Positions 15,823-52,332 of a stretch of 64,000 bases of DNA are shown one piece after another. This DNA comes from Marinobacter adhaerens HP15 (GTDB lineage Bacteria; Pseudomonadota; Gammaproteobacteria; Pseudomonadales; Oleiphilaceae), in NCBI RefSeq assembly GCF_000166295.1, contig NC_017506.1, positions 3,162,001-3,226,000 of the forward strand, read 5' to 3'. Below the pieces are notes generated by a model, which worked only from the letters and a program-made list of their open reading frames with translations, made no database searches and had not been told where the DNA came from. The stretch's first letter is position 1. Every line of letters begins with the position of its first letter. The position numbers and the translations under genes are program-made.

Positions 15823-15926
15823 CGGTTGGCGGGTGTCTTCCCGGGAGACGCTACGAGCACATCCATGTGCGCTTGACTGAGGCCATCCATGGCCTCAGAC
15901 ACTCCCGGGAAGACACCCGCCAACCG
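15823..15926 (-). repeat. Palindromic element with 54-nt conserved core, copy 1 (inverted)
   Basis: Perfect 25-nt inverted-repeat arms at 15823-15847 and 15902-15926 enclose a 54-nt core (15848-15901). The core, read on the minus strand, begins TGT and ends CTCGTAGCGT like copies 2 and 3. It forms hairpin A with an 8-bp stem CTGAGGCC/GGCCTCAG and hairpin B with GCACA/TGTGC around loop TGGA. The arm sequence is unrelated to that of copies 2 and 3. It lies between aotM and astE, so it would be transcribed if those genes form one unit. Confidence 0.85.
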
Positions 15927-15952
15927 CCCTCTGACTTTTCCGTGGAGTCCCC

Positions 15953-17008
15953 ATGACCGTTAGTTCGGATCTATTTGGCAGTTCCCATGATTGGCTCTCA
16001 CACACCCTCGACAACGCGGATGCATCACTCCCAGAAACCAAAGCCTTCCTCCCTGACGGCACGCGTATCAGCCGCAAAGCCGTAGGCGTTCTGGACATTG
16101 TCCCCCCGGCGGCACGCAGCAATCCGAATGCCGAAGCCATCATCGTTTCTGCAGGTGTTCACGGGAACGAAACAGCGCCCATTGAGGTTCTTAACAGACT
16201 GGTTTCCGAACTGATTGAGGGCGAATGGGAGCTGGCTTGCCCGGTCTTGCTCATTATGGGTAACCCGCCCGCGATGGTCGCTGGGAAGCGCTTTCTGGAA
16301 GTGAACCTCAATCGGCTGTTCGATGGCGCGCATAGTCGGAACGAGTATGAGGGGCTGGCCGAGGCTGCGCGGGCGCAGGAACTTGAGGAGGCTTGCCGGC
16401 AGTTTGCCATGGCCAATCCCCAGGCGCTTTATCACTACGACCTGCACACCGCCATTCGGCCGTCGCACCGGGAGCGGTTTGCGCTGTATCCGTTTGTTGA
16501 GGGCCGGACGGTTCCGGTCGACCAGTGTGATTTTTTGCTGGAGGCAGAGGTGGAGACGCTTCTGCTGCAGCACAAGGCGGGCACCACGTTTTCGTCGTTT
16601 TCCTCGTCGCTGCTGAAAGCCGAGAGTTTTACCGTGGAGCTGGGTAAGGTGCGGCCGTTCGGGCAGAATGATCTGGGGCGTTTCTCGGGTATACGGGATG
16701 CATTGCGGCGGCGATTCAAGGGGCAACCCTCGCCTGCCCCGCAGCCGCCGTTTGATCACCTGACGGTGTTTGAGGTGGTGCATGAGATTCTGAACACCGG
16801 GAAGAACTTCCGGTTCCATATTCCGGACGATGTCGCCAATTTCACCGAGTATCAGCCCGGCACAGTCATCTGGGAGGACGACGAGACCAGTTATCGGGTG
16901 GGGCATTCACCAGAGGCGATTGTGTTCCCCAATCCGGAGGTTCCGGTGGGCCATCGAGTCGGGCTGATGATCCGGCCAGAAACGGGGTCAGATGAAAGTT
17001 TCATCTGA
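15953..17008 (+). CDS. astE: Succinylglutamate desuccinylase AstE
   Basis: Zinc hydrolase of 351 residues in the M14/AstE-AspA family, catalysing the last step of the arginine succinyltransferase pathway: N-succinylglutamate to succinate plus glutamate. 'GVHGNETAPIE' (H70, E73) and the later His in 'YDLHTAIRPS' are the zinc ligands; 'ESFTVELGKVRPFG' contains the catalytic Glu of the family, and 'NLNRLFDG' is the substrate-binding Arg-rich motif. TGGAG precedes the ATG. The last codons (G-S-D-E-S-F-I) and the stop lie inside a 27-nt palindrome, so the C-terminus has been rewritten by a repeat. Other ast genes are at 22-28 kb on the opposite strand. Confidence 0.93.
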   Translation: MTVSSDLFGSSHDWLSHTLDNADASLPETKAFLPDGTRISRKAVGVLDIVPPAARSNPNAEAIIVSAGVHGNETAPIEVLNRLVSELIEGEWELACPVLLIMGNPPAMVAGKRFLEVNLNRLFDGAHSRNEYEGLAEAARAQELEEACRQFAMANPQALYHYDLHTAIRPSHRERFALYPFVEGRTVPVDQCDFLLEAEVETLLLQHKAGTTFSSFSSSLLKAESFTVELGKVRPFGQNDLGRFSGIRDALRRRFKGQPSPAPQPPFDHLTVFEVVHEILNTGKNFRFHIPDDVANFTEYQPGTVIWEDDETSYRVGHSPEAIVFPNPEVPVGHRVGLMIRPETGSDESFI

Positions 17009-17011
17009 CCC
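16985..17011. repeat. REP-like palindrome overlapping the astE stop
   Basis: GGGTCAGATGAAA and TTTCATCTGACCC are perfect 13-nt complements separated by one G. The palindrome contains the last astE codons and its TGA. GGGTCAGA-type palindromes are widespread intergenic repeats in gammaproteobacteria; here it also may act as the end-of-transcript hairpin between convergent astE and the RND gene. Confidence 0.75.
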
Positions 17012-17024
17012 TCGTTCCGGCTGA

Positions 17025-20000
17025 TCAGGCCGGGGCGTTTTCGGGTTCCGGCACGCTGACTTTGATCAACTGGGTGCAGACAGCCGGGATGACCAGCAGC
17101 GTCAGCACCGTTGAGGCCAGCAGGCCGGAGATGATGGCCCAGGCCATGGGTGGCCAGAGCGTGGAGCTTGAGAACGCCAATGGCAGCAGGCCGGCCACGG
17201 TGGTTGCTGTGGTCAGCAGGATCGGGCGGGTGCGCTGCTCTACCGCGTTGCGCATGGCGTCGCGGATGTCTCTTCCTTTCTCCAGTTCCCGATCCATCAC
17301 GTCCAGCAGAACGATGGCGTTGTTCACCACGATTCCCACCAGGGCGATCACGCCGAGCAAAGACTGGAAACCGAAGGGTGAGCCAGAAAGCACCAATCCG
17401 GGGAAAATACCGACGGTAGCCAGCGGCACCGTCAGGAGGATAATGCCGACCCGGCGGAAGGAGTTGAACTGCAGCAGCAGGAAGAACAGCAGCAACAGCA
17501 TCCCGATGGGGGCTGCGGTGAGCAATGCGGTGTTGGCTTCACCGGAACCCTCGGCATCACCGCCCATGGCCATGCGGGTACCCGGTGGTAACGGGTTTTT
17601 CTCAAGCCCTGCGTAAAGGCCGTCCAGAGCCTGGCTGAAGCTGTAACCGGTTTCGAGGTTAGCCGTGACAGTATTCATTCTTACGCCATCACGCAGGTAT
17701 CGAGCCGCCGGTTCCCAGGTGGTATCCACTGTTGCCACTGCTGAGAGCGGTACGGCGTCGCCCCGATCGTTGTAGATGTTCACTGATAGCAACCGTGACA
17801 GCGACAGGGCCGTGCCCTCGCGGGAACGCAGCACCAGGGGGATGGGATCCTCTTCCTGGCGATAGCGCTCAGCCACCACACCAAAGCTCTGGCCATAGAG
17901 GCTTTGGGCCACATCGGCCCGGGTCAGGCCGTAGCGGGCCGCCGTGGCATCGTCGACGTTGATGGCAATACTGGGAACGCCAATATCCAGGTCATGGCGA
18001 ACATCAACCGTGCCCTCAACGCCTCTCAGAATGCTGAAGATCCGCTCCACCGCTTCGATCCGGGCACCATCATTGACATGGTAGACACGGATTTCCACCG
18101 GTGCAGCCCTGGGCGGTCCCTGCCCGAGAATACCCACGGTCACATCCAGTTCCGGCATCTGCTCTTTCACGTGCGCGCGAATCCAGCGGATCATGCCGGT
18201 AGTGTCTTCCAGTGTGGGTGTGGTAACCACCAGCCGTGCCCGGTTCGGTGCCTGGGGGGCGCGCTGCAGGTTGTAATAAAATGAAGGTCCGGTGAAGCCT
18301 ACGAACCGGTGGACCTTCAGGGCATCCGGCTGCGAACGGATAATTCGTTCCAGACTTTCCGTGGCCTCTGCCGTGCGGGCCTGGTCGGTGCCCTCGGGCA
18401 TGTAGACTTCGACAATCACCCTCGGGCGATCGGCATTCGGAAAGAACTGCTGGGCCATAAAGGGGGTCATCGCAAGACTGATGCCCACAAGTATGGCGCC
18501 GGCGGTAATCAGCCGTCCGGGGTAACGGGATACCAGGCCACCCAGAAAACGGGCTACTCCGATCAATCGGTCCTGGCCCGCCTTGCGGCGGGGCTTCAGG
18601 AATCTGGCCGCCAGCAAGGGAACGGCGGAGATAGCCAACAGATAGCTGACGGACAGTGTCAGCATGATCATAACCGGCACGCCACGGGTGAAATCCGCAG
18701 CACCGCCCTTGGCCAGAAGCAGGGGTGCGAAGGCCGCCAGTGTCGTTCCCGTTGAGGCACCCAGCGGGCCGGCCAGCTCGCTGACGGCCTGGCGCAGGGC
18801 ATCCAGCCGCCGCATGCCCTCATCCAGGTGCCCCTGGATGTTTTCGACGATCACGATGGCGTTGTCGATCAGGATGCCCAATGAGATCACCATGCCAATG
18901 ACGGCGATCTGATGCAGCACGCCCCCACCGAGGTCATAGAGCCCGACACTGATCAGGGCAACCATGGGCAGAATGGACGCGACCAGCAGCCCCATACGAA
19001 TGCCCATGCCGGTAAAGACCACCGCCACGATGATCAGCACTGAAAGCACCAGGCTCCAGGCCAGGTTATCGAGCCGTTCCTGCACCTTGTCCGGCTGGAA
19101 GAACATCTCCCGGATCTCGTAGGGTTCAAAGTCTCCGCGAATCTGCTCCATGCGTTCGCGCACCCGCTGACCAAAGCGGATCGCATCGGTGGTGCCCTCT
19201 TCCATAATGATGGAGACCAGCACCACCCGTTCGCCGTCGTACCAGGTTTCCGGCTGTCTGGGTTCTACTGGTCCACGCCAGACATCCGCTGCCGCGGCCA
19301 GGGGCACCTGTGAGCCATCCGGAAGTTCAATGGGCGTGGCGCGGATGGCGTCAATATCGGCAAACTCGCTGTTGGGAAGGACCGACAGGCGGCGGCCATT
19401 GACCACCACGAAGCCGCCGGGAATGGTCTGGTTTCGCCGCGCCAGCGTGTCCAGCACCCGCGCCGGTGAGATACCAAGCCGGAAGAGCGCGGCATCGTCC
19501 AGTGCCAGGGTAATCTGCTCGTCTGCATCACCTTCCAGCTCAATCCGGGAAACCCCCGGCAAATCCGAGAGGTTCTGCTTCAACCGTTCAGCAACGTCGG
19601 ATAGTTCCGTTACCGAGGGCGAGCCACCTACGGCCATGACGATGGCAGGAATATCGATTAGACGGTCATCAAGTACCATCCGGCCCACATCGTCCGGGAA
19701 GTCCTGCTTCGCGCGCTCCATGGCCTGGCGCACTCGGTCCCAGGCGGGGTCGGTGTCGTAGATGTCGTCATTCAGGCGCAGGCGCACGATGGCAACGCCG
19801 GTACGGGCGGTGGACTGGGTATAATCCACCCCCTCCACCTGCCGAAGTTCATCCACCAGGGGCCTGAGTACGAGCCGTTCAACGGCCTCGGCGCTGGCAC
19901 CCGGATAGTTGATGCTGATCAGGCCGGCCCGGTAGGGAAACGACGGGTCTTCCTGGCGTGGCATGGTGCTGTAAGCCGCGATACCCAACAGGCAGAGCAT

Positions 20001-20051
20001 GGTCACCACCATGCCCAGCAGGCGCTGGCAGTTCAGAAGCCGGCGGGTCAT
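17025..20051 (-). CDS. RND-family efflux transporter
   Basis: Inner-membrane proton-driven transporter of 1008 residues, AcrB/HAE1-related. It shows one N-terminal membrane segment followed by a large periplasmic loop, a membrane bundle near residues 330-500 with 'GILIDNAIVIVENIQGHLDEG', a second periplasmic loop and a C-terminal bundle with 'GIVVNNAIVLLDVMDRE'. These two motifs mark the internal duplication. The preceding adaptor gene overlaps by 1 nt. No outer-membrane channel gene is linked, so a shared TolC-like protein is expected. Substrates are unknown; the divergent TetR suggests induction by a toxic compound. Confidence 0.92.
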   Translation of the reverse strand: MTRRLLNCQRLLGMVVTMLCLLGIAAYSTMPRQEDPSFPYRAGLISINYPGASAEAVERLVLRPLVDELRQVEGVDYTQSTARTGVAIVRLRLNDDIYDTDPAWDRVRQAMERAKQDFPDDVGRMVLDDRLIDIPAIVMAVGGSPSVTELSDVAERLKQNLSDLPGVSRIELEGDADEQITLALDDAALFRLGISPARVLDTLARRNQTIPGGFVVVNGRRLSVLPNSEFADIDAIRATPIELPDGSQVPLAAAADVWRGPVEPRQPETWYDGERVVLVSIIMEEGTTDAIRFGQRVRERMEQIRGDFEPYEIREMFFQPDKVQERLDNLAWSLVLSVLIIVAVVFTGMGIRMGLLVASILPMVALISVGLYDLGGGVLHQIAVIGMVISLGILIDNAIVIVENIQGHLDEGMRRLDALRQAVSELAGPLGASTGTTLAAFAPLLLAKGGAADFTRGVPVMIMLTLSVSYLLAISAVPLLAARFLKPRRKAGQDRLIGVARFLGGLVSRYPGRLITAGAILVGISLAMTPFMAQQFFPNADRPRVIVEVYMPEGTDQARTAEATESLERIIRSQPDALKVHRFVGFTGPSFYYNLQRAPQAPNRARLVVTTPTLEDTTGMIRWIRAHVKEQMPELDVTVGILGQGPPRAAPVEIRVYHVNDGARIEAVERIFSILRGVEGTVDVRHDLDIGVPSIAINVDDATAARYGLTRADVAQSLYGQSFGVVAERYRQEEDPIPLVLRSREGTALSLSRLLSVNIYNDRGDAVPLSAVATVDTTWEPAARYLRDGVRMNTVTANLETGYSFSQALDGLYAGLEKNPLPPGTRMAMGGDAEGSGEANTALLTAAPIGMLLLLFFLLLQFNSFRRVGIILLTVPLATVGIFPGLVLSGSPFGFQSLLGVIALVGIVVNNAIVLLDVMDRELEKGRDIRDAMRNAVEQRTRPILLTTATTVAGLLPLAFSSSTLWPPMAWAIISGLLASTVLTLLVIPAVCTQLIKVSVPEPENAPA

Positions 20052-21130
20052 CAGCGCACCTCCACGGCATCACCGTCCGCCAGACGCGTCATGCCGGCAT
20101 AAACCACCAGGTCACCCGGGGACAGATCGCCGGAGGTAACCACCACCCGCTCGCCCACGACCCGGTCGACTTCCACCGCAACACGGGAGGCCACATTATC
20201 CCGGACCCGGAACACACTGACGCCCTCGGCATTGCGGATCACCGACAGCAGGGGCACTGTGATGGCAGATTCCCGAACAGGCGTGATGCCCACTTCTACC
20301 GGCTGGCCGGGCTCCAGGGTGTTTACCGGCAGGCTCACCAGAACCGGATGCAGCTCGCCGCGAATGGCGCTGGCCTGGGCAATCTCGACCACCGAACCGG
20401 ACTGTGGCGGGCGGCTGCGGTCCTGGACGGACCAGACAGGCAAGGTTTGCTCCAGCTCAACATGATCCAGCAGATACGCCGGTACCCGCACCTCTACCTC
20501 ACGGCCCTCGGGCGAGGAAAGCCGCATCACCGGCTGTCCGGCCGCCACGAATTCGTCCCGCTCCACCAGCAGGGCTTCAACCCGTCCGGAAAAGGGCGCC
20601 CGAAGTGTACTCTCCTCGAGCAGCTGGGTTGCCTCCGCCAGGGAGGCCCGCGCCGTTGCGACGCTCGCCTCCAGGGAGTCCCGCCGAGCTGCGAGCTGCT
20701 CCAGCGTCTGTTCGGATACCACACCGCGCTCGTGCAATCGGCTGGAGCGCTCCCACTCCCGCTGAGCCTGCTGATACTGGGTTCTCAACTCTTCCAGGCG
20801 GGCCCTGGCAGAATCCCGGGCCGGCTCCAGGCCAGGATTGTAGACACGGGCAAGCAGATCACCGGCCTGCACCTTCTGCCCGAGCTCCACCGCCTGCTCC
20901 TTGAGGGTGCCACTGACCTGGAAGGTCAGTGTCGCTCGCTGGGTAGCACGAACAATTCCGGAAAACCGCAGCGGCATATCCTGGCTCTCGCCGCCGGAAA
21001 CTTCAGACACACGCACTGAAACCTTCTGCTGCCCGGGCTCCGGGGCTACGTCACTGGCTTTACAGCCCGACAGAAACAGTGAAAAAACCGCAAGAGAAAC
21101 GATGGCAACGGGGATTCGAAGTGGTGTCAT
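20051..21130 (-). CDS. RND efflux periplasmic adaptor lipoprotein
   Basis: Membrane-fusion protein of 359 residues. A lipobox L-S-G-C at the end of the N-terminal hydrophobic stretch predicts lipid anchoring. Residues 60-85 ('LKEQAVELGQKVQAGDLLARV') form the first lipoyl half, a coiled-coil hairpin of alternating Gln/Glu/Arg follows (about 90-160), then 'LRAPFSGRVEALLVERDEFV' gives the second lipoyl half. The ATG at 21130 has AAGGAAGAG upstream; an ATG at 21145 in frame is possible. It links the RND pump to the outer membrane channel. Confidence 0.9.
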   Translation of the reverse strand: MTPLRIPVAIVSLAVFSLFLSGCKASDVAPEPGQQKVSVRVSEVSGGESQDMPLRFSGIVRATQRATLTFQVSGTLKEQAVELGQKVQAGDLLARVYNPGLEPARDSARARLEELRTQYQQAQREWERSSRLHERGVVSEQTLEQLAARRDSLEASVATARASLAEATQLLEESTLRAPFSGRVEALLVERDEFVAAGQPVMRLSSPEGREVEVRVPAYLLDHVELEQTLPVWSVQDRSRPPQSGSVVEIAQASAIRGELHPVLVSLPVNTLEPGQPVEVGITPVRESAITVPLLSVIRNAEGVSVFRVRDNVASRVAVEVDRVVGERVVVTSGDLSPGDLVVYAGMTRLADGDAVEVR

Positions 21131-21201
21131 GACTCTTCCTTTCATCCTTGCTTGTGTAGTTGGCGGGGTCCTGTCCCTGGAGAAACCCGATGATTGATTT
21201 A

Positions 21202-21232
21202 GACATCATGTCATTCTTTGACATTTTGTCAA
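21202..21232. promoter_or_regulatory. Probable TetR operator in the efflux divergent region
   Basis: GACATCATGTC (21202-21212) is a perfect palindrome and TTGACATTTTGTCAA (21218-21232) has perfect 5-nt arms. Both contain GACAT/TGTC, so they look like two binding sites for the TetR protein encoded 65 nt downstream, placed between it and the adaptor gene. Confidence 0.6.
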
Positions 21233-21296
21233 TAATCGGGTTTGATTCGATTTCAGGTATCCTATGCGTGCTTTTGCCAACTAACCGGATGATTGA

Positions 21297-21932: not shown

Positions 21933-21954
21933 CAACTCGCAGCCCGGCAGGCTG

Positions 21955-23295: not shown

Positions 23296-23309
23296 GGCAC
23301 TGGGTTCCG

Positions 23310-25873
<2,564 letters not shown>

Positions 25874-26954: not shown

Positions 26955-26963
26955 AAGATCTCC

Positions 26964-29738: not shown

Positions 29739-29900
29739 GGAACAACTTTACGCCTCATTGGCAACTGCAGATGTCTGTATATGAACGAAAAGCTGTTATA
29801 GACATTCGTCTAATTTCTGCATGAATTTATTTGAATTGTCACGAATTCGTAACTACCTTGTTTTTGGGTCCAACAACAAAAATGTGTGGAGACAACAACG

Positions 29901-31034
29901 ATGCAAAGCAACAAACTGAGATTGGCAATTCGTGCGACGGCAGCAACAGTAGTAATGGGGGTTGCCTCTCAAGCGAGCGCACTTACGCTGAACGTAGGTG
30001 ACGATACCGAAGCGAGCCTGTATGGCTACGCTCGTCTGAACATGAGCTATGACCTGGACGGCAACCGCGCCGTATCCACCCGTGCAGGTTCTTTCACTCC
30101 CGCTAACGAAGACGTAACTGGCCACTTCGGCGCTGACGTACAGCAGAGCCGTCTGGGCGTTAAAGTCAAGCACGCGTCTGGCGTTGCGATCACCGTTGAA
30201 GGTGACTTCCGTGGTTCCGGCAACGGTGCAGGCAGTCTGCGTATGCGTCACGCGTACGGTGAATACAACGGTTTCATGGCCGGCCGTAACTGGTCCAACT
30301 ACACCAGCTTCGTAGGTAACACTCCGACTCTGGACTTCGACAGCCTGGCAGGCACAGCTGGTAGCCAGGATCGTACCGAGCAGGTTCGTTACACCACTGG
30401 CGCTCTTTCCTTCTCCCTTGAAGATCCGAGCTCACAGGGTGTTCTGGGTGCTGGCGGCAACACTCGCACCTCTGCACCTGCCCTGACTGCCCGCATCCAA
30501 GATTCCGCTGATGCTCTGTCCTACTCAGCTGCAGCGCTGATCAGCCAGGTTACCGCTGACGACGGCACCAATGACGACAGCGCCATGGGCTACGCAGTGT
30601 TTGGTGCGGCCAAGTTTGCTCTGAGCGATATGATCTCCATTCAGGGTGCAATCAACTACACCGACGGCGCCAACGGGTATCTGTGGCGTTCAGGCAGCAA
30701 CTACTTTGGCCCAAGCGCCTATGTAGATGGTAACAGCATTGAAACCATCGCAGGCTACGGCGGCTCGATTGGTACCAGTGTTGCCCTCGGCGGTGGTCGT
30801 AGCATCAACCTGGGCTACGGCACCACTACTCTGGACCTGGACGACGCGATTGCAGCTGGTGCAACTACCAATGCTGATGCTGAAACCAACCAGAATATCT
30901 TCCTGAACTACATGTGGTCACCGGTACAAAACGTCATGATGGGCGTTGAGTACGGTTACTTCGATCAGGAAACTGTGGCCGGTGACTCCACTGACGCAAA
31001 CCGCATCATCTTTGCGGCGCAGTACGGCTTCTAA
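29901..31034 (+). CDS. Outer-membrane porin, DcaP-like
   Basis: Beta-barrel porin of 377 residues. Residues 1-27 form a signal peptide ending A-S-Q-A-S-A, and the mature protein begins with 'LTLNVGDDTEASLYGYARLN', a start resembling DcaP-type trimeric porins. The sequence alternates polar and hydrophobic residues and ends 'IFAAQYGF' with a terminal Phe as needed for barrel assembly. The ATG at 29901 has TGGAG upstream; a GTG at 29886 in frame would include that site. The codon choice (many CGT, GGT, ACC) suggests high expression. Substrate unknown; DcaP members pass negatively charged organic molecules. Confidence 0.82.
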   Translation: MQSNKLRLAIRATAATVVMGVASQASALTLNVGDDTEASLYGYARLNMSYDLDGNRAVSTRAGSFTPANEDVTGHFGADVQQSRLGVKVKHASGVAITVEGDFRGSGNGAGSLRMRHAYGEYNGFMAGRNWSNYTSFVGNTPTLDFDSLAGTAGSQDRTEQVRYTTGALSFSLEDPSSQGVLGAGGNTRTSAPALTARIQDSADALSYSAAALISQVTADDGTNDDSAMGYAVFGAAKFALSDMISIQGAINYTDGANGYLWRSGSNYFGPSAYVDGNSIETIAGYGGSIGTSVALGGGRSINLGYGTTTLDLDDAIAAGATTNADAETNQNIFLNYMWSPVQNVMMGVEYGYFDQETVAGDSTDANRIIFAAQYGF

Positions 31035-31216: not shown

Positions 31217-31322
31217 GAGAGGCGGGCAATACGATTCAGGACTGTAGAGGGCCAGGGATGGCCCGAAACAAGCCCCCATGGATGGGCTCGTAGCGTGTCC
31301 TGAATCGTATTGCCCGCCTCTC
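31217..31322 (+). repeat. Palindromic element with 54-nt conserved core, copy 2
   Basis: Perfect 26-nt arms (31217-31242 and 31297-31322) enclose a 54-nt core (31243-31296). The core matches copy 3 at all but a few positions and ends CTCGTAGCGT. Hairpin A is GGGCC/GGCCC with loop AGGGAT; hairpin B is CCCA/TGGG with loop TGGA. It fills the convergent gap between the porin (31034) and aceF (31366), downstream of the porin terminator. The 331-nt gap holds nothing else that I recognise. Confidence 0.88.
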
Positions 31323-31365: not shown

Positions 31366-33030
31366 TCACAGCAGAAGGGTACGAATGTCCCCAAGAAGCT
31401 GACTGAGCACCGTGGTAAACCGGGCCGCATCGGCCCCATTCACCGCCCGGTGATCGTAAGACAGCGACAACGGCAGCATCAGGCGGGGCTGGAACTCCTT
31501 ACCATCCCAAACCGGCTTCATCGCCGCCTTGGACACCCCAAGAATCGCCACCTCCGGCGTATTCACAATCGGCGTAAACGCGGTGCCGCCAATACCACCC
31601 AGACTGGTGATGGTAAAACAGGCACCCTGCATCTCTGCCGGCTTCAACTGCTTGTCCCGGGCTTTCTGGGCAAGCTCGGCGCTCTCGGCAGCAAGCTCCC
31701 ACAAGCCCTTCTTGTCCACATCCTTGATCACCGGCACCATCAGCCCGTTGGGCGTATCCACCGCAATCCCGATGTGAATGTACTTCTTGCGAACCACCTC
31801 CTTGCGCTCCATGTCCAGAGACACGTTGAACTGGGGCAGTTCTGCCAGCGCCGTGGCACAGGCCTTCAGCAGGAACGGAAGCGGCGTCATCTTAACGCCC
31901 TTCTTCTCGCCGGCTGCCTTCTGGGCCTTGCGGAAATCCTCCATATCGGTGATGTCCGCATCCTCGAACTGGGTGACGTGAGGCACGTTAAGCCAGCTGC
32001 GCTGCATGTTGTTGGCCGTGGCGAACATCATCCGCGACATGGCCTCACGCTTCACTTCACCAAACTGGCTGAAGTCTGGCAGCTTGACCCCGGGGATACC
32101 GGAGCCGGTGGCAACACCGCTACCCTGCTGAGCCTGCTTTAACTGGCTCTTCACATAGGCGTGGACATCGTCCTTGATAATCCGGCTCTTCGGGCCAGAG
32201 CCCTTGATGCGGGCCAGATCGGCACCCAGCTCACGGGCCAGCTTGCGAACAGCAGGGCCAGCATGGACCTTCGCGCCAGGCGTGGGCGGCTCATAGGTTG
32301 CACCCTGAGGTTCAGGGGCAGACTCTGCTTGCTGCTTTGGCTTCTCTTCGGACTTGGGCTCCGACTTCTCTTCCTTCGCCGGCTCTTCAGACGCCGGCTC
32401 GGAGTCGTCTTCCGCTTCGCCGCCCTCTTCCTGGACGGTCATCTCCAGCAGCTCATGGCCCTCGGAGAGCTTGTCACCCTCTGACACCAGGATCTTGCCC
32501 ACTTTGCCCGAGTACGGCGAGGGAATCTCCATGGTGGCCTTGTCCGATTCCACGGTAACCAGCGGATCGTCAGCCTCGATGGTATCGCCTTCGGCAACAT
32601 TGATTTCGATAACCGGAACATTGTCGAAGCCATCCAGCGCAGGAACCTTCACGGTCTCCTTGCGTGAGCCCCCGGAAGCCTTCTTCGGCGCCGGCTTGCT
32701 CTCTTCGGATTTCTCCTGCTTATCGGCTTCGCTCTTTTCCTCGGCTTTTCCTTCCGGCTCTTCCTCGGAATCGTCAGAGCCACCACCATCGGCGCTGGCT
32801 TCCATCATCCCCACGACGTCGCCTTCCTTGACCTTGTCGCCCACCTTAACGGTGATTTTGGTGATCTTGCCGGCACCGGGCGACGGCAGCTCCACCGAGG
32901 CTTTGTCTGACTCTACGGTCAGGATCGGATCTTCTGCTTCAACCGAATCCCCTGCACTGACGGTGATTTCGATAACCTCGACCTCATCCGCACCGCCGAG
33001 ATCCGGAACCTTGATTTCCTGTTCACTCAT
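31366..33030 (-). CDS. aceF: Pyruvate dehydrogenase E2, dihydrolipoyl acetyltransferase
   Basis: The 554-residue E2 has two lipoyl domains, each with the lipoylated Lys in D-K-A ('VESDKASVELPSPG', K43; 'VESDKATMEIPSPY', near residue 160). They are joined by Glu/Lys/Ser/Ala-rich linkers. A peripheral subunit-binding domain follows ('GPAVRKLARELGADLARIKG', about residues 252-285), then the catalytic domain ending in 'DHRAVNGADAARF', the active-site His-Asp motif. It transfers acetyl from E1 to CoA in the cytoplasmic PDH complex. The gene starts 10 nt after aceE. No E3 gene (lpd) is linked here. Confidence 0.96.
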   Translation of the reverse strand: MSEQEIKVPDLGGADEVEVIEITVSAGDSVEAEDPILTVESDKASVELPSPGAGKITKITVKVGDKVKEGDVVGMMEASADGGGSDDSEEEPEGKAEEKSEADKQEKSEESKPAPKKASGGSRKETVKVPALDGFDNVPVIEINVAEGDTIEADDPLVTVESDKATMEIPSPYSGKVGKILVSEGDKLSEGHELLEMTVQEEGGEAEDDSEPASEEPAKEEKSEPKSEEKPKQQAESAPEPQGATYEPPTPGAKVHAGPAVRKLARELGADLARIKGSGPKSRIIKDDVHAYVKSQLKQAQQGSGVATGSGIPGVKLPDFSQFGEVKREAMSRMMFATANNMQRSWLNVPHVTQFEDADITDMEDFRKAQKAAGEKKGVKMTPLPFLLKACATALAELPQFNVSLDMERKEVVRKKYIHIGIAVDTPNGLMVPVIKDVDKKGLWELAAESAELAQKARDKQLKPAEMQGACFTITSLGGIGGTAFTPIVNTPEVAILGVSKAAMKPVWDGKEFQPRLMLPLSLSYDHRAVNGADAARFTTVLSQLLGDIRTLLL

Positions 33031-42016: not shown

Positions 42017-42025
42017 TAGCAGGAG

Positions 42026-43613: not shown

Positions 43614-43767
43614 CAACGTTCAGAGCGGCACGGGTTTTGCCTTTGCAGACAGGCCCGTGTTCCGGAGCAAACTCCAGAGCCATCTGCTTGACAAGCAGTG
43701 AGGTGTGGTGTTTGTTTAACTCTCTGAGAACACAAGAATAACCCTGAAATAAAACAGGACAGACTCA

Positions 43768-44880: not shown

Positions 44881-44910
44881 GCCAAATCGTTAACAAACGG
44901 TAATCATGAG

Positions 44911-44949
44911 AACACCTTCTCACCGCGATCCGGGAGAAGGTGTTTTTCT
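44911..44949 (+). terminator. Attenuator/terminator between livJ and livH
   Basis: AACACCTTCTC (44911-44921) pairs perfectly with GAGAAGGTGTT (44934-44944), followed by TTTTC. An intrinsic terminator inside an operon gives excess binding protein over membrane parts. Confidence 0.85.
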
Positions 44950-45041
44950 AGGCTCCTGTTGATCCTCCCCCACTTCCTGCCCGGATATCCCGGACACGGG
45001 GTGTGGTAGCGGAGGGAGCAGGCTTTCGGAGTCCCATAACA

Positions 45042-45965: not shown

Positions 45966-47236
45966 TGGCTGCTAACAATTTCAGACACGCGCTCTTTTGC
46001 GCGTTCATTACACTGATCATTTCCTACCCGATCATTGGCTTCAATCTTGAGGCCCAGGGCATCAACGTGACCCTGACCGGCGCCGATGCCAGCACCATCG
46101 TGATGGTATTGTTCGCGGCGGTGATCGTATTCCTGTTCCAGATGTTCCGGGAACAGATCATGGGGGGCCTGAAGAGCATTCCCCATCCTCTGCCTCAATC
46201 CAACAAGGAGCCGATGGCGGAAAACCGCCGCGCAAAGATCGAATCCTGGGTACTGACCGGCATCGTGGTTCTCGCCCTGTTCTGGCCGTTCTTCGTGTCA
46301 CGCGGTGCGGTGGATCTCGCGACCCTGGTGCTGATCTACATCATGCTGGCCCTTGGCCTGAACGTGGTGGTTGGCCTGGCCGGGCTGCTGGACCTTGGCT
46401 ATGTGGCGTTCTACGCCGTGGGCGCCTACACCTTTGCCCTGCTCTCCCAGTACACCGGCATTTCGTTCTGGCTGGCGCTGCCTATTGGTGCTCTGCTTGC
46501 CGCATTGTTCGGTCTGGTGTTGGGCTTTCCGGTACTCCGGTTGCGGGGGGATTATCTGGCCATCGTAACCCTCGGGTTTGGCGAGATCATCCGGATACTT
46601 CTGAACAACTGGACGACGCTGACTGGTGGCCCCAACGGCATTGGTGGCATCCCCGATCCAACCCTGTTCGGCATGGAATTCGGGCGCCGGGTGAAGGAAG
46701 AGGGCAACACCTCGTTCCACGAAACCTTCGGCATCGCCTACAGCGGTGAACACAAGGTTATCTTCCTGTACCTCATTGCCCTGGTTCTGGCGGTATTCAC
46801 CGCGCTCGTAATCCGTCGATTCATGCGGATGCCCGTGGGCCGGGCCTGGGAAGCACTGCGGGAAGACGAGATCGCTGCCCGCTCCCTGGGTCTCAGCCGC
46901 ACCGCAGTGAAGCTGTCCGCCTTTACCATTGGCGCCTTCTTTGCCGGTTTCGCCGGCACTGTGTTCGCCTCCAAGCAGGGCTTCATCAGCCCGGAATCGT
47001 TTGTCTTCCTGGAGTCTGCCATCATCCTGGCGATCGTGGTTCTCGGCGGCATGGGTTCCCAGATCGGCGTGGTACTGGCAGCAATCGCTGTCACCATCCT
47101 GCCGGAACTGGCCCGTGAGTTCTCCGAATACCGCATGCTGATCTTCGGTGCCGCCATGGTGCTGATGATGGTCTGGCGTCCGCAGGGCCTGATGCCCATG
47201 CGCCGCATTCATATTGAACTGAAAAGGCAGGAGTGA
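45965..47236 (+). CDS. livM: Branched-chain amino-acid ABC transporter permease LivM
   Basis: Second permease, 423 residues, with the LivM core motifs '[20 protein letters not shown]' and '[19 protein letters not shown]'. As in many proteobacteria it carries an extra N-terminal region (about 90 residues with two membrane segments, DUF3382-like) before the core. It pairs with LivH. The start overlaps livH by 1 nt, so the two are translationally coupled. Confidence 0.93.
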
Positions 47237-47242
47237 CAGACG

Positions 47243-47998
47243 ATGCTTGAAGTACAGAATCTGTCCATGCGCTTTGGCGGCCTGCTGGCGGTAGACGAAG
47301 TGTCTCTGGACGTTCAGGAACACGAGATTGTGTCCATCATCGGCCCCAACGGGGCTGGAAAAACCACTGTATTCAACTGCATGAGCGGTTTTTACAAGCC
47401 CACGGGCGGGAAGATCCTATTCGAGGGCAAGGAAGTACAGGGCAAGCCTGACTACAAGATCTCCCGTCTGGGGATGGTTCGCACCTTCCAGCATGTCCGG
47501 CTGTTCAGCCAGATGACGGTGGTGGAAAACCTGCTCGTGGCACAACATCGCCACCTGAACACCAACCTGATTTCCGGCCTCATCCAGACACCCAGTTACC
47601 GGAAGAAAGAGCAGAAATCCCTGGACCGGGCCGCCTACTGGCTGGATCGGGTAGGCCTGCTCGACATGGCCAACCGGGAGGCTGGCAACCTGGCCTATGG
47701 CCAGCAACGGCGCCTGGAGATTGCCCGCTGCATGGTCACCGAGCCCAAGCTGTTAATGCTCGACGAGCCGGCAGCCGGCCTCAACCCGGCGGAAACCAAG
47801 GAACTCAACCAGCTGATTATCAGCCTGAAAGAGGACTACAACGTTTCCGTAGTGCTGATTGAGCACGACATGAGCCTGGTAATGGATATTTCCGACCGCA
47901 TCAACGTCATCAACCAGGGCCGCCCCCTGGCCAGTGGCACACCGGAAGAAATCCGCCAGAACGACGACGTGATCAAAGCATATCTGGGCGAGGCCTGA
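47243..47998 (+). CDS. livG: Branched-chain amino-acid ABC transporter ATPase LivG
   Basis: ATPase of 251 residues. Walker A 'GPNGAGKTT', signature region 'AYGQQRRLEIARCMV', Walker B 'KLLMLDEPAAGLNP' and switch His 'IEHDMSLVM' are present. The signature has 'AYGQQ' in place of canonical LSGGQ, which is normal for LivG. It energises import with LivF. It starts 6 nt after livM. Confidence 0.94.
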   Translation: MLEVQNLSMRFGGLLAVDEVSLDVQEHEIVSIIGPNGAGKTTVFNCMSGFYKPTGGKILFEGKEVQGKPDYKISRLGMVRTFQHVRLFSQMTVVENLLVAQHRHLNTNLISGLIQTPSYRKKEQKSLDRAAYWLDRVGLLDMANREAGNLAYGQQRRLEIARCMVTEPKLLMLDEPAAGLNPAETKELNQLIISLKEDYNVSVVLIEHDMSLVMDISDRINVINQGRPLASGTPEEIRQNDDVIKAYLGEA

Positions 47999-48007
47999 GG
48001 TAAACAC

Positions 48008-48709
48008 ATGCTAGTACTAGAAGATGTCCATACCCACTACGGCAAGATCGAGGCCTTGCACGGGGTGTCTGTCGAAGTCAAAAAGGGTGAGATCGTCTCG
48101 CTGATCGGCGCCAACGGCGCCGGCAAGACCACGCTGCTGATGACCGTCTGCGGTAACCCCCGGGCCAGTTCAGGACGCATTTTCCTGGAGGGCCGGGAAA
48201 TCACCAACGAATCCACGGCGCAGATCATGCGCTCCGGCATCGCCATTGTTCCGGAGGGGCGTCGGGTGTTCTCGGGCCTGACCGTGGAGGAAAACCTCCA
48301 TATGGGTGGTTTCTTCAACACCAAGGCCGAAATCCGCAAGAGCCAGGAGCACGTCTACGAGCTCTTCCCGCGCCTCAAGGAACGTGAACATCAGCGTGCC
48401 GGCACCATGTCTGGCGGCGAGCAGCAAATGCTGGCTATCGGGCGGGCACTGATGAGCAGGCCAGAGATGATCATCCTTGATGAACCATCACTGGGCCTGG
48501 CGCCGCTGATCATCAAGCAGATCTTTGAGATCATCGGCCAGCTTCGCGAGGAAGGCATTACGGTTTTCCTCGTCGAGCAGAATGCCCACCAGGCCCTCAA
48601 CCTGGCAGACCGGGGTTACGTGCTGGAAACCGGAAAGATTCGCCTGCACGACACGGGTAAGAATCTGCTCAACAACCCGGATGTCCAGAACGCCTATCTG
48701 GGCGGCTGA
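48008..48709 (+). CDS. livF: Branched-chain amino-acid ABC transporter ATPase LivF
   Basis: ATPase of 233 residues. Walker A 'GANGAGKTT', signature 'MSGGEQQMLAIGRALM', Walker B 'MIILDEPSLGLAP' and 'FLVEQNAHQAL' (His of the switch displaced, as usual in LivF) identify it. It forms the nucleotide-binding heterodimer with LivG and is the last gene of the operon, followed by a strong terminator. Confidence 0.94.
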   Translation: MLVLEDVHTHYGKIEALHGVSVEVKKGEIVSLIGANGAGKTTLLMTVCGNPRASSGRIFLEGREITNESTAQIMRSGIAIVPEGRRVFSGLTVEENLHMGGFFNTKAEIRKSQEHVYELFPRLKEREHQRAGTMSGGEQQMLAIGRALMSRPEMIILDEPSLGLAPLIIKQIFEIIGQLREEGITVFLVEQNAHQALNLADRGYVLETGKIRLHDTGKNLLNNPDVQNAYLGG

Positions 48710-48733
48710 TCCTGGATCCTTGCCTCGAAGCAT

Positions 48734-48767
48734 AAAACCGGAGCATGCACGCTGCTCCGGTTTTTTT
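48734..48767 (+). terminator. Terminator of the liv operon
   Basis: AAAACCGGAGCA (48734-48745) and TGCTCCGGTTTT (48753-48764) are perfect 12-nt complements followed by further T. Confidence 0.92.
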
Positions 48768-48947
48768 GGGCTAAATCAAATACTCACCAATCTTTAAACT
48801 TGCGTTGGCTGGATTTCAACTATACTCAGATCAACGGTCAACCTGTCTCCACAAGACCAGTCAGGGCCGTTTTCGCAATGCTGCTCCACGTCAGGGGCAG
48901 CATTGTGTATTGCGACGACAGCTTTAAACCACAGGAAGGAGTGGATA

Positions 48948-49412
48948 ATGAAAAAACTGATCGCAGGTGCAATTCTTCTTGGTGCCTCTTCTATGGCCTT
49001 TGCCCAACCGGGCTGTGGCGTCGGTGCCATGATCTGGAAAGGACAATCCGGCATTGCCCCCCACGTACTCGCTGCAACCACCAACGGTACCTTTGGTAAC
49101 CAGACGTTTGGTATGACCACAGGCACCCTTGGCTGCCAGACCAACCAGTCTGTTCAGTCCATGGCCATGTACATGGACAGCAACATCGACAAGGTGGCCC
49201 GGGACATGTCCCGCGGTTCCGGTGAGAACCTGGACACCCTGGCAGTGCTTCTGGGCGTCGACGAAGCTGACCGGGACACCTTCCGCAAGGTGCTGCAGGA
49301 CAACTTTGCCACCATTTTCCCGAACTCTGACACCACCTCCGGTGAAGCCGTGGACGCCATCGTCGCGCTCCTGGAGCAAAACGAGTCACTCAGCAAATAC
49401 GTAGCAGCCTGA
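48948..49412 (+). CDS. DUF3015 exported protein
   Basis: A 154-residue exported protein. Residues 1-19 form a signal peptide ending A-F-A, then 'QPGCGVGAMIWKGQSGIAPH' and 'NGTFGNQTFGMTTGTLGC' mark DUF3015. Two cysteines in the mature part could form a disulfide. The C-terminus is helical ('LDTLAVLLGVDEADRDTFRK'). AGGAAGGAG precedes the ATG. In this and related organisms the gene is found beside a DUF4105 gene, and that arrangement is kept here, suggesting a shared envelope role of unknown nature. Confidence 0.85.
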   Translation: MKKLIAGAILLGASSMAFAQPGCGVGAMIWKGQSGIAPHVLAATTNGTFGNQTFGMTTGTLGCQTNQSVQSMAMYMDSNIDKVARDMSRGSGENLDTLAVLLGVDEADRDTFRKVLQDNFATIFPNSDTTSGEAVDAIVALLEQNESLSKYVAA

Positions 49413-49486
49413 TCCAGGCTCCTTGAAGGGACTCTCATGCGCCAGGGACGGCGCATCGTTCCATTCTCTACCCTGTTCAACCCCGG

Positions 49487-51367
49487 ATGCAGCACCAACC
49501 CATGGGCAACATGCTTCGCATTGGGCCAGCCCTGATCTGGCTTGCAGTCAGCCTGCCGACCCAGGCCAATTCGCCTGAACACGCAACCGAGCTCCATCTC
49601 GACCCTGCCTGGCTTACACTCATTCATTATCAACCCGACAGGTTTGGTAGCGGATATACCAGCCAGGCCGACGATCCGGCCTTTTTCCTGAGCGAAAATG
49701 GCAAGCACTCCCCCCGGGCAGAGCTCAAGGCCACCCTGGATGCTATCCAGAAAGACGGGGAAGGCGACGACCACGCCCTCTGCCGCTTCCCGGCACGGGC
49801 AACCTGGCTCAGTCAGCAACTTGATCTGTCGCTACCGGAGATCGAGTGTCCCGGCTTCCAGGAATGGTCGGAAACATTGAACACCGAGACGGTGACCCTG
49901 GTGTTTGCCGCCTCTTATCTCAACAGCCCGTCTTCCATGTTCGGGCACACGTTTCTGCGCCTGGACCCACCCCAGGATGACGACGAAACCAACCTGCTGC
50001 TGGCCAACACGATCTCCTATGCCGCTGATGCCGCCGCCCACGACAGTGAACTGCTGTTCGCGTACAAGGGCATTTTCGGCGGCTATCCCGGCATCACTAC
50101 GGTCCAGCCGTACTACGAGAAAATTCGGCTTTACTCCGACATCGAACATCGTGACCTGTGGGAGTACAAACTGAATCTCACCCAGGATGAAGTGGACCTG
50201 ATGATCGCCCATGCCTGGGAGATCAGGGACCGGAATTTCGATTACTACTTCTTCGACGAGAACTGTGCCTATCGCCTTTTGGCGCTGATAGACATTGCCC
50301 GCCCGGGCACGGACCTTTTGGGGGAAGTAAGCACTCACGCCATTCCGTCGGACACGGTTCGCTGGGTGGTCGACAAGGATCTGGTCAGCGAAGTCTACTA
50401 CCGGCCTTCTGCTGCCACATCGGTGGCCTACAGTCTCTCAACCCTGCCTGACGATCAACAGACCCTTGCGGCAGCGGTCGCCAACGGATATGTAGCCGCT
50501 GATGGTAGCGAAGTGAAGTCACTGCCAGCCGAGCAACGAGCACATGTTCTGGACGCCACTTACGATTATGTTCGATACAAGAGCGAGGCCGACGGTTGGC
50601 CCCGTGAAATCGCCGCACCACTCTCCCATGACCTGTTGAGAGAGCGCAGCCAGATCAGCGACGTCGCACCGCCCGAGGAACCACCAGAACCGGTAGTTCG
50701 GGATGATCAGGGCCACGACACCTTCCGCCTGAGCCTCGGAGCAGGCCAGCAGGCACACAGGGAATTCACCCAGTTGACCCTGCGCCCGGCCTACCACGAT
50801 GTGCTGGACCCGCCGGCCGGCTACCGTACCGGTGCCCAGCTGCAGTTCCTCCGACTCGACGCGCGCCTGTATACCGACAACGACGAACTTCAACTGGAAC
50901 AGCTTACCGGCGTGGAAATCCGCTCCCTGAGCCCGCGGAACGCCTTTTTCTCTCCACTGTCCTGGCAGGTAGGTTTTGGTGGCCGCCGCACGGATACTGG
51001 CAACGATCGGGTCCTGACGCCCTACCTTGAGGGCGGAGCTGGCGGCAGCTGGCGCCTTGGCAACCAGACCCAGGCCTTTGCCATCGCCACCGCCGACCTG
51101 GAGATCGACGACGACCTGCGCCGAGGCTACGATGCTGCCCCGGGCGCCGACATCGGCCTGCTCCATCAGAACAACCAGTTCAGCCTGCTCGCCGGTGCCA
51201 AAACCAAGGCCTGGATCGTCAGCAGCCAACACCGCCAGGATCAGCTTTACGCCAAAGCCAACTGGCATATCGGCCGCGAGTTCAGTCTGTTTGCCGAGTT
51301 CACCCGGGAAGACCACTACGACAGGTATCAAAGCCTATGGCACGCCGGAATCCACGCGTATTTCTGA
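49487..51367 (+). CDS. DUF4105 protein, probable envelope protein
   Basis: A 626-residue protein. An N-terminal hydrophobic stretch ending near 'LPTQANS' is a signal peptide, with the start either at 49487 or a few codons later (M-G-N-M-L-R). The middle (about residues 130-290) is the DUF4105 region, with 'SSMFGHTFLRLD', 'YAFKGIFGGYPG'-like sequence and 'NYYFFDENCAYRL'-type motif ('DYYFFDENCAYRLLAL') holding conserved His and Cys that look catalytic. The C-terminal 200 residues alternate in a beta-barrel-like manner and end 'HAGIHAYF'. That suggests a protease/transferase-like domain with an outer-membrane barrel (inference). The stop overlaps the next gene by 31 nt. Confidence 0.78.
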   Translation: MQHQPMGNMLRIGPALIWLAVSLPTQANSPEHATELHLDPAWLTLIHYQPDRFGSGYTSQADDPAFFLSENGKHSPRAELKATLDAIQKDGEGDDHALCRFPARATWLSQQLDLSLPEIECPGFQEWSETLNTETVTLVFAASYLNSPSSMFGHTFLRLDPPQDDDETNLLLANTISYAADAAAHDSELLFAYKGIFGGYPGITTVQPYYEKIRLYSDIEHRDLWEYKLNLTQDEVDLMIAHAWEIRDRNFDYYFFDENCAYRLLALIDIARPGTDLLGEVSTHAIPSDTVRWVVDKDLVSEVYYRPSAATSVAYSLSTLPDDQQTLAAAVANGYVAADGSEVKSLPAEQRAHVLDATYDYVRYKSEADGWPREIAAPLSHDLLRERSQISDVAPPEEPPEPVVRDDQGHDTFRLSLGAGQQAHREFTQLTLRPAYHDVLDPPAGYRTGAQLQFLRLDARLYTDNDELQLEQLTGVEIRSLSPRNAFFSPLSWQVGFGGRRTDTGNDRVLTPYLEGGAGGSWRLGNQTQAFAIATADLEIDDDLRRGYDAAPGADIGLLHQNNQFSLLAGAKTKAWIVSSQHRQDQLYAKANWHIGREFSLFAEFTREDHYDRYQSLWHAGIHAYF

Positions 51368-52215
51368 CCACCACCACGGCCCGGCTAAGCGGGCTTCTGG
51401 TTGCGCTTCTGCTGCTATCCGGTTGCAGCAGCGTCTTCTTCTACCCGGATCGGGTGACTTACATCACCCCGGACCGACTGAACCTCGAATACGAAGACAT
51501 CTACCTCGACACGGCCGACGGCGAAACCCTCCATGGCTGGTGGCTGCCCGCAGAAGCCCCTGAGAACAACGCCAGGGGCACAGTCTATTTCCTGCATGGC
51601 AACGCCCAGAACGTCAGCAGCCACATCCTCAACGTAGCGTGGCTGCCCGAGAAAGGCTACAACGTCTTTACCATCGACTACCGGGGCTACGGCAAATCCA
51701 CCGGTGACCCGGACATCGAAGGCGCGCTGCACGACGTGGAAACCGGCCTGCGTTGGCTGGCCCAAAAACCTGACGTGACCGACCGCCCCCTATACATCCT
51801 CGGCCAGAGCCTCGGCGGCGGTCTCGGAATCGCCCTGGCCAGTGAATGGATTCAGAGGGAGGAACAGCCCCGGCTGGACGGTGTAATCCTGGATGGTACC
51901 TTCTCCGGCTTTCGCAAGATCGCCCGGGAGAAATTAGGTGGGTTCTGGCTTACCTGGCCGTTGCAGATTCCGCTAAGCTGGACGATTCCTGATGACTACG
52001 AGGGCCTGGACCATATTCCCAGAATCAGCCCGGTGCCGGTCATGGTGATCCACAGCGTTCGGGACGGGATTATTCCCTTTCATCATGGAGAGGCGCTGTT
52101 TGAGGCAGCACAGGAGCCCAAAGAGTTCTTGCAGACGGATACGCCTCACGGGGCGACGTTTGTTATTCCCGGGTACCGGAGAGAGGTGCTTCGCTTCATG
52201 AATGCTGGGCGATAG
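51337..52215 (+). CDS. Lipoprotein alpha/beta hydrolase
   Basis: Serine hydrolase of 292 residues. A lipobox L-L-S-G-C at residues 26-30 predicts a lipid anchor. 'YFLHGNAQNVSSH' carries the oxyanion region, 'YILGQSLGGGLGIAL' the nucleophile elbow with Ser, and Asp and His of the triad are placed in 'HSVRDGIIPFHHG' and 'DTPHGATF'. The fold matches the YfhR/BEM46-type hydrolases. It overlaps the DUF4105 gene by 31 nt, so is likely co-translated. Substrate unknown. Confidence 0.86.
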   Translation: MARRNPRVFLTTTTARLSGLLVALLLLSGCSSVFFYPDRVTYITPDRLNLEYEDIYLDTADGETLHGWWLPAEAPENNARGTVYFLHGNAQNVSSHILNVAWLPEKGYNVFTIDYRGYGKSTGDPDIEGALHDVETGLRWLAQKPDVTDRPLYILGQSLGGGLGIALASEWIQREEQPRLDGVILDGTFSGFRKIAREKLGGFWLTWPLQIPLSWTIPDDYEGLDHIPRISPVPVMVIHSVRDGIIPFHHGEALFEAAQEPKEFLQTDTPHGATFVIPGYRREVLRFMNAGR

Positions 52216-52222
52216 AGTGTGG

Positions 52223-52332
52223 GCGGCTGTTGGGTTTCCCTTTTCAAAAGTGTTGAGGGCCAAGGACGGCCCGAAACAAGCGCACATGGATGTGCTCGTA
52301 GCGTCTTTTGAAAAGGGAAACCCAACAGCCGC
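52223..52332 (+). repeat. Palindromic element with 54-nt conserved core, copy 3
   Basis: Perfect 28-nt arms (52223-52250 and 52305-52332) enclose a 54-nt core (52251-52304). The core ends CTCGTAGCGT. Hairpin A is GGGCC/GGCCC with loop AAGGAC; hairpin B is GCACA/TGTGC with loop TGGA, as in copy 1. The arms begin 8 nt after the hydrolase stop and are unlike those of copies 1 and 2. It occupies the convergent gap between the hydrolase and pnp. Confidence 0.88.

What the first reader, a model, noticed from the sequence alone, without database searches (positions are those of the whole stretch)
15823..52332. Three palindromic elements with a fixed 54-nt core but private, perfect inverted-repeat arms
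At 15823-15926, 31217-31322 and 52223-52332 a core of exactly 54 nt is flanked by perfect inverted repeats of 25, 26 and 28 nt. The cores are clearly homologous: all begin TGT, share CAAGC before hairpin B and end CTCGTAGCGT. The arms share no sequence between loci. An ordinary mobile element has conserved ends and a terminator has no conserved loop, so the usual classes do not fit. One idea (inference) is an element that inserts and copies the adjacent target as its reverse complement on the far side, giving a cruciform with a constant head. Another is a nucleic-acid structure recognised by its head, with the stem free to drift only by paired changes.
Basis: partly seen in the sequence, partly recalled or inferred. 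Interest (0 to 1): 0.85.

Follow-up and report, generated by a model that had tools for sequence, protein, structure and literature searches.

The report
Scattered Y-shaped RNAs with CsrA-type hairpins
The three palindromes look like copies of a scattered RNA element that folds into a long stem topped by two small hairpins of the kind the global regulator CsrA grips; each copy's stem has its own sequence because it drifts only by paired changes, and the window's genome carries at least 85 copies.

Summary
The window's genome (Marinobacter, by 74-97% matches to named contigs) carries at least 85 copies, none inside a roughly called gene. Each is a ~28-bp stem capped by a 52-58-nt three-way-junction head with two hairpins. 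In 85 of 85 both loops hold GGA, nearly always as CANGGANG, the GGAs 20-22 nt apart: the published CsrA/RsmA site at bridging distance. The arms are private because copies drift by paired changes: orthologous copies stay complementary, and G.T outnumbers A.C 141 to 17, so the folded GGA strand is selected, as RNA or, less likely, ssDNA. Target copying is not supported; in two other genera whole units with shared arms have spread. Rfam's TwoAYGGAY (RF01731) has this architecture: two copies in this genome exceed its cut-off, one window copy lies just below. I judge it a high-copy, locus-private variant of TwoAYGGAY, most likely a CsrA-docking RNA spread as a repeat. CsrA binding and transcription are inferred; no promoter signal was found. 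All 30 adjacent pairs under 300 nt that I counted point away from each other, unexplained.

The parts
15823..15926 (-). Element 1: 25-bp perfect stem plus 54-nt head, GGA strand is the minus strand; lies between an ABC-permease gene (15071-15793) and an AstE/AspA gene (15953-17008), both on the + strand
15902..15926 (-). Element 1, 5' arm on the GGA strand
15848..15901 (-). Element 1, 54-nt head (three-way junction: hairpin A, hairpin B)
15885..15890 (-). Element 1, loop of hairpin A (ATGGAT)
15861..15866 (-). Element 1, loop of hairpin B (ATGGAT)
15823..15847 (-). Element 1, 3' arm on the GGA strand
31217..31322 (+). Element 2: 26-bp perfect stem plus 54-nt head, between a DcaP-like porin gene (29886-31034, +) and a 2-oxoacid dehydrogenase acyltransferase gene (31366-33030, -)
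31217..31242 (+). Element 2, 5' arm
31243..31296 (+). Element 2, 54-nt head
31254..31259 (+). Element 2, loop A (AGGGAT)
31278..31283 (+). Element 2, loop B (ATGGAT)
31297..31322 (+). Element 2, 3' arm
52223..52332 (+). Element 3: 28-bp perfect stem plus 54-nt head, between an alpha/beta-hydrolase gene (51337-52215, +) and a PNPase (pnp) gene (52408-54627, -)
   Evidence: (TwoAYGGAY 41.3 bits, cut-off 43)
52223..52250 (+). Element 3, 5' arm
52251..52304 (+). Element 3, 54-nt head
52262..52267 (+). Element 3, loop A (AAGGAC)
52286..52291 (+). Element 3, loop B (ATGGAT)
52305..52332 (+). Element 3, 3' arm

Best explanation
The palindromes are modules for a structured RNA of the TwoAYGGAY kind (Rfam RF01731). 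The GGA strand, as RNA, folds into a ~28-bp stem ending in a three-way junction with two hairpins whose loops are ANGGAN, 20-22 nt between the two GGAs. Shown by sequence comparison: the fold, its conservation by paired changes, the strand polarity, the near-invariant loops, the high copy number and the intergenic position. Inferred: that it is transcribed, that one CsrA/RsmA dimer bridges the two hairpins, that the long stem holds the two sites in register and protects the RNA, and that the many copies together act as a distributed sink or local docking site for CsrA. The element has spread as a whole repeat unit (seen as shared-arm families in two other genera); in Marinobacter the copies are probably old, so their stems have drifted apart by compensatory change, which is why the arms look private while the head is constant.
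For: At least 85 copies in the own genome: 84 matches of 45.8 bits or more, next match 21.9, plus one. Stem paired to about pair 28, then pairing falls to a third or less Watson-Crick; in 23 copies 13 of 14 inner pairs change on both sides and 99.4% of cells pair. Orthologues: locus 2, 16 species, 15 of 26 stem pairs changed on both sides, 6 of 416 cells unpaired; locus 3, 11 of 18 species with an element, 19 of 26 and 2 of 286. G.T 141 v A.C 17 in 5424 cells of 226 elements; 80 v 9 in 105 elements that also carry a head pattern, so less tied to the model's arm score; 17 v 1 in the inner 14 pairs of 65 elements of other genera; same polarity whether the upstream gene is co-oriented (38:4) or not (24:3) (own copies). 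GGA in both loops in 85 of 85 own copies, 110 of 112 from named contigs, 32 of 32 orthologues and 64 of 65 of other genera; motif CANGGANG; gap 20-22 nt. CsrA literature, passages read: ANGGAN hexaloop, bridging of sites 10-63 nt apart, optimum >18 (PMC7652899); TwoAYGGAY predicted to bind CsrA (PMC4333381). RF01731 over its cut-off on two own copies. csrA in 59 of 61 Marinobacter genomes, the two without being under 85% complete.
Against: No transcript data. No sigma-70-like promoter enrichment upstream (5.6% of 214 copies over the score that 5% of shuffles reach) nor between 30 divergent pairs (3.3%); 34 of the 84 own copies with a called upstream gene do not follow a co-oriented gene, so how the GGA strand is transcribed there is unknown. 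CsrA occurrence does not track the element: 33 of 36 genomes with matches v 38 of 44 without have CsrA, and one 98%-complete genome with 2 matches has none found (G256). Three copies lack GGA in one loop (two, one). Loop conservation is partly circular, since the loops helped the model and the pattern find the copies. A G.T excess could also arise from a folded single DNA strand.
Confidence: 0.62

Rival explanations
1. A REP/REPIN- or MITE-like mobile repeat whose folded single DNA strand (not an RNA) is the recognised form; the CsrA-like loops are then part of a transposase recognition hairpin.
For: High copy number, no copy inside a called gene, equal numbers on both strands of the chromosome (42:42); every adjacent pair closer than 300 nt is divergent (own 9 of 9; named contigs 21 of 21), which recalls inverted REP pairs; whole-unit copies with sharp ends in G309 and an outer inverted repeat in G127.
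Against: RAYT/Y1 transposase (PF01797) is not found in the own genome nor in other element-rich genomes such as G009 and G001 (other transposase families not tested); no clear bias to leading or lagging strand (38 v 46, origin position assumed at base 1); the loops match the CsrA RNA motif with variation almost only at its N positions, which a DNA-binding transposase does not predict; in the own genome the two pairs with the same arms lie in 2.7-2.8-kb segmental duplicates, not moved elements.
Confidence: 0.22
2. Insertion with inverted copying of the target: an element lays down a fixed head and copies the neighbouring DNA as its reverse complement.
For: Near-constant head, private outer arms.
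Against: Both arms change together between orthologues while staying paired; G309 has copies with shared arms in unrelated surroundings; G.T/A.C polarity shows selection on a folded strand; the inner arms have a family consensus.
Confidence: 0.03
3. Bidirectional terminators or 3'-end stabilisers between genes, with the head as an incidental loop.
For: Preference for convergent gaps (28 convergent v 14 divergent contexts by rough gene call); long stable stems.
Against: The 3' flank is T-poor, so no U-tract on the GGA strand; a terminator does not need 85 of 85 copies to keep GGA in two loops; polarity does not depend on gene orientation.
Confidence: 0.08
4. DNA-level upkeep: long palindromes kept perfect by template-switch correction, without selection on RNA.
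For: Near-perfect arms; one altered copy (L075) has a left half that is an inverted copy of the hairpin-B flank, as template switching would make.
Against: Correction of DNA predicts about equal G.T and A.C intermediates (reasoned, not simulated); observed 141 v 17 and 80 v 9.
Confidence: 0.05

Closest known systems
TwoAYGGAY RNA (Rfam RF01731; Weinberg et al. 2010, PMC2864571; CsrA binding predicted in PMC4333381)
   Same: Long outer stem enclosing two hairpins with ANGGAN-type loops and a CGU near the end of the head (alignment); two copies of this genome score 44.7 and 43.6 bits against a cut-off of 43, element 3 of the window 41.3.
   Different: Most copies fall below the cut-off. A copy number of 85 or more per genome, locus-private arms drifting by compensation, divergent pairing, and model matches in 33 of 222 sampled genera are not mentioned in the passages I read or in titles and abstract starts listed (one search listed none).
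Csr/Rsm sponge RNAs (CsrB, CsrC, RsmX/Y/Z; Aln1a-c of Alteromonas, PMC5864184, passages)
   Same: ANGGA motifs in loops that are held to bind CsrA/RsmA.
   Different: Those are one to a few dedicated sRNA genes, most with more sites each (recalled, except Aln1a-c); here each element has one pair of sites and there are dozens of elements without a recognisable promoter.
REP/REPIN and bacterial MITE repeats (features recalled)
   Same: Many short intergenic palindromic copies, often as inverted pairs; whole units copied in G127 and G309.
   Different: No RAYT found in the own genome; constraint is on a folded strand with a protein-binding RNA motif; in Marinobacter the best-conserved part is the head, not the ends.

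Membership tests
TwoAYGGAY RNA (RF01731) | Scores at or above the curated gathering score (43 bits) | tested here: inconclusive
   Window copies: none at gathering; element 3 41.3 bits, and 4 of 16 own loci listed with 33-41 bits. Own genome: 2 of 8 matches with E up to 0.01 are over the cut-off; 8 of 31 Marinobacter genomes have one over it (63 candidates scored per genome). At least 85 copies exist, so most are below.
TwoAYGGAY RNA (RF01731) | Outer stem enclosing two hairpins with AYGGAY-type loops | tested here: met
   Alignment to the model; all 85 own copies have both loops with GGA, as ANGGAN.
TwoAYGGAY RNA (RF01731) | Tandem G.A in one hairpin stem (noted for the family in PMC4333381) | tested here: inconclusive
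   Read by eye from the sequences, e.g. the AGAGGGCC/GGCCCGAA stem; other copies have full pairing or a mismatch at one pair (17 of 23 copies unpaired at columns 20-37).
Csr/Rsm-type CsrA-binding RNA | ANGGAN hairpin loops, paired sites at bridging distance | tested here: met
   Motif and 20-22-nt gap against passages of PMC7652899.
Csr/Rsm-type CsrA-binding RNA | Binds CsrA in vitro or in vivo | not testable with these tools
   No binding or CLIP data at hand.
Csr/Rsm-type CsrA-binding RNA | Transcribed from its own promoter | tested here: inconclusive
   No sigma-70-like enrichment upstream of 214 copies or between 30 divergent pairs; the matrices were recalled approximations and other promoter types were not covered.
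REP/REPIN with RAYT | RAYT (Y1_Tnp) in the genome | tested here: not met
   0 matches in the own genome; 34 of 61 genus genomes have any.

The most novel reading that the evidence does not exclude
A class of mobile RNA element that carries a ready-made docking site for one CsrA dimer: it has seeded genomes in many gammaproteobacterial genera, in some with dozens of copies, so that the Csr regulator is titrated or recruited by an interspersed repeat, a distributed sponge of at least 170 sites in this genome, and close copies are held as divergent pairs by an unknown replication or transcription mechanism.
Probability: 0.3. Interest if true: 0.85.

Novelty: new variant of a known kind. Interest (0 to 1): 0.62.

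Why it matters
If CsrA binds these heads, a global regulator is confronted in one genome with some 170 sites spread by a repeat, an unstudied layer of the Csr network and a natural experiment (sister species with 0 to more than 70 copies). It also gives the obscure TwoAYGGAY family a copy-rich host genus with cultured strains in which its function can be tested.

Tried and rejected
Target-copying insertion: not supported, by orthologue comparison and by shared-arm copies elsewhere. RAYT mobilisation: PF01797 not found in the own genome. DNA-only upkeep of the palindrome: disfavoured by G.T v A.C. Own sigma-70 promoter: no signal. Copy number against CsrA copies or presence: no relation visible by eye. 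Replication-strand bias: none clear. The gene beside element 3 was first taken for rpsA; it is pnp, and my note carries the wrong name. The microRNA families are matches of any long hairpin, all far below their cut-offs. Literature: listings (one search listed none) showed no title or abstract start that describes such dispersed elements; passages only of PMC2864571, PMC4333381, PMC5864184, PMC4679880, PMC7652899 and PMC4383904 were read, no supplements.

Limits: genome censuses are lower bounds because only 150, 75 or 16 candidates per genome were scored; one copy (L204:4427-4506) was found only by local search. Gene calls are from a home-made codon score, not an annotation, and overlaps of up to about 25 bases were tolerated. 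The sigma-70 matrices are recalled approximations. Sequences in the G.T/A.C counts are related, so the p values are too small.

Rows dropped: near-identical copies and copies too close to a stretch end. Four of the 89 matches: three antisense readings of true copies and one partial match in L235. Nine of the 121 matches, leaving 112: the five lowest-scoring (L102, L075, L098:2371, L049:7382, L042:1333), two cut by contig ends (L095, L078), one with an insert (L037), and L098:4-85 at a stretch end. The two own copies among the 34 matches (32 left as orthologues). At locus 3, 7 of 18 elements left out of the pair count (one identical to the own copy, six of other head types). One search shows 65 of the 68 matches; the other three are copies fetched twice; of 91 pattern sites in the 80 named loci 82 lie in the 112 elements; of the nine others three are at stretch ends, four are altered copies (L037, L042, L075, L102) and two (L041 Azotobacter, L064 Kushneria) are unrelated sequence. 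In G127 one of 12 fetched copies (L355) has other arms and flanks; in G309 one of 10 (L382) lacks the shared flanks.
Full report
WHAT IS THERE. The three palindromes are at the stated places, with perfect arms of 25, 26 and 28 nt and 54-nt heads, and fold far better than shuffles (z -8.8 to -11.3; 0 of 200 shuffles as good in each). The heads align without gaps, 41 of 54 columns invariant.

MANY COPIES. A head pattern found 25 sites in the own genome (control 1); 24 are full elements and one (L025) is not. A covariance model of 23 of them (R1) found 84 matches of 45.8 bits or more, the next being 21.9; a local search added one. So there are at least 85 in 4.65 Mb, one of them on contig C2. In a draw of 274 genomes of the class, 37 in 33 of 222 genera have matches (own genome included, 16 candidates scored per genome).

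ANATOMY. In 85 copies the stem pairs by Watson-Crick in more than nine cells of ten out to pair 20, in about three quarters or more to pair 28, and then drops to a third or less beyond pair 29. The head is a three-way junction (predicted fold): hairpin A, linker C(A/G)AGC, hairpin B, then a tail ending GCG(T/G) in most copies. The first base of the head varies with the linker (63 T-A, 14 C-G, 8 C-A), which lengthens hairpin A towards the junction. GGA stands in both loops in 85 of 85 own copies, 110 of 112 copies from named contigs, 32 of 32 orthologues and 64 of 65 copies of other genera. Own loops read CANGGANG in 83 of 85 (A) and 85 of 85 (B), and the GGAs are 20-22 nt apart. Weak flank consensus: AAAGTTCGAAG before the stem, CNCCNCCAAACC..AAAGGCTAG after it, then a T-poor stretch.

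WHY THE ARMS ARE PRIVATE. At the place of element 3, 18 of the 30 fetched genus loci have an element; at element 2, 16 of 30 (own copy included in both). Element 1 has orthologues in three named contigs. Orthologues differ in arms and stay paired: 15 of 26 stem pairs changed on both sides among 16 species at locus 2 (6 of 416 cells unpaired), 19 of 26 among 11 of the 18 at locus 3 (2 of 286). M. guineae differs from the window at element 3 by a T-A to C-G double change. In G029 the element of locus 2 is missing; the alignment suggests a deletion but its ends are not clear. At locus 2 the near relative G009 (96.8% identical neighbouring gene) has a different arm allele while G023 (93.9%) has the window's arms, probably allele exchange by recombination (inference). 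In two other genera copies share arms: 11 of 12 fetched from G127, with a further outer inverted repeat, and 9-10 of 10 from G309, nine of which have units bounded by roughly TTAGGAA..TTCCTAA with unrelated DNA outside. So the element has been copied as a unit, and private arms are most simply the aged state (inference). In the own genome the two pairs with the same arms lie in 2.7-2.8-kb segmental duplications.

RNA, AND WHICH STRAND. On the GGA strand G.T pairs number 141 and A.C 17 in 5424 stem cells of 226 elements. A palindrome kept by DNA repair should give them about equally; tolerance of G.T marks selection on a folded strand, and on this strand. In 105 elements that carry a head pattern the count is 80 v 9, in 65 of other genera 17 v 1 over the inner 14 pairs. 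It holds where the upstream gene is co-oriented (38 v 4) and where it is not (24 v 3). A folded DNA strand is not excluded by this alone; the loop motif favours RNA.

PLACES. By a rough gene of 85 lie inside genes; contexts on the element's strand are convergent 28, co-oriented 22, anti-oriented 18, divergent 14, unknown 3. Adjacent copies closer than 300 nt are all divergent: 9 of 9 in the own genome, 21 of 21 among 112 elements of named contigs; under 1000 nt 12 of 12 and 24 of 25, the exception being tandem. The genes round the nine own pairs are convergent (4), tandem (3) or divergent (2), so gene order does not explain it (read). No promoter-like enrichment lies upstream or between the pairs.

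FUNCTION. ANGGAN hexaloops are the CsrA/RsmE site, and one CsrA dimer bridges sites 10-63 nt apart, best above 18 (PMC7652899, passages). PMC4333381 (passages) predicted CsrA binding for TwoAYGGAY. I therefore propose docking of one CsrA dimer per head and a summed sink effect of many copies. Transcription, binding and effect are inferred. Against it or neutral: csrA is in 33 of 36 genomes with matches and 38 of 44 without, which does not discriminate; one 98%-complete genome with two matches shows no CsrA (G256); and copy number shows no relation to csrA number in the genus.

KNOWN KINDS. RF01731 exceeds its cut-off in two copies of this genome (44.7 and 43.6, cut-off 43) and in 8 of 31 Marinobacter genomes; window element 3 scores 41.3; at gathering the window has no match. 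Architecture agrees, scores are borderline, so this is a variant of TwoAYGGAY rather than a new class. The table of PMC2864571 lists TwoAYGGAY as probably an RNA and probably not cis-regulatory, from human gut, gammaproteobacteria and Clostridiales (passage), while the Rfam table types it as Cis-reg. RAYT is unlikely as mobiliser. No title, abstract start or passage seen describes the dispersed, private-stem form.

Noticed in passing
own genome and named Marinobacter contigs: All 30 adjacent pairs of copies closer than 300 nt that were counted are divergent, 33-180 nt between stems, whatever the gene order. Unexplained.
   Followed up: partly
L075 near 7316 (minus strand): An altered copy whose left half is an inverted copy of the hairpin-B flank, as expected of a template switch in a palindrome.
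   Followed up: no
L037 near 220: A copy with inserted sequence that includes an extra ANGGAN hairpin, giving three such loops.
   Followed up: no
L354, L356, L357, L360, L364 (G127), upstream flank: Outside the stem lies a further hairpin GCGGTGC-A(T/G)GGAT-GCACCGC, again with an ANGGAN loop, beside an outer inverted repeat; in L363 the inner element is inverted within that repeat.
   Followed up: no
G029 v its relatives: A Marinobacter whose protein beside element 2 is 93% identical to the window's has only 9 matches where G000, G009 and G023 have 53-74, as if most copies were lost in one lineage.
   Followed up: no
L243, L272, L273 intergenic: A different palindromic repeat, around GGGGTCAGATGAAAG..CTTTCATCTGACCCC, in several copies at loci 2 and 3 of other Marinobacter species.
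   Followed up: no
L083: A contig labelled Rhodopirellula MAG is 96% identical to the own Marinobacter genome over 3 kb; probably mis-binned.
   Followed up: partly
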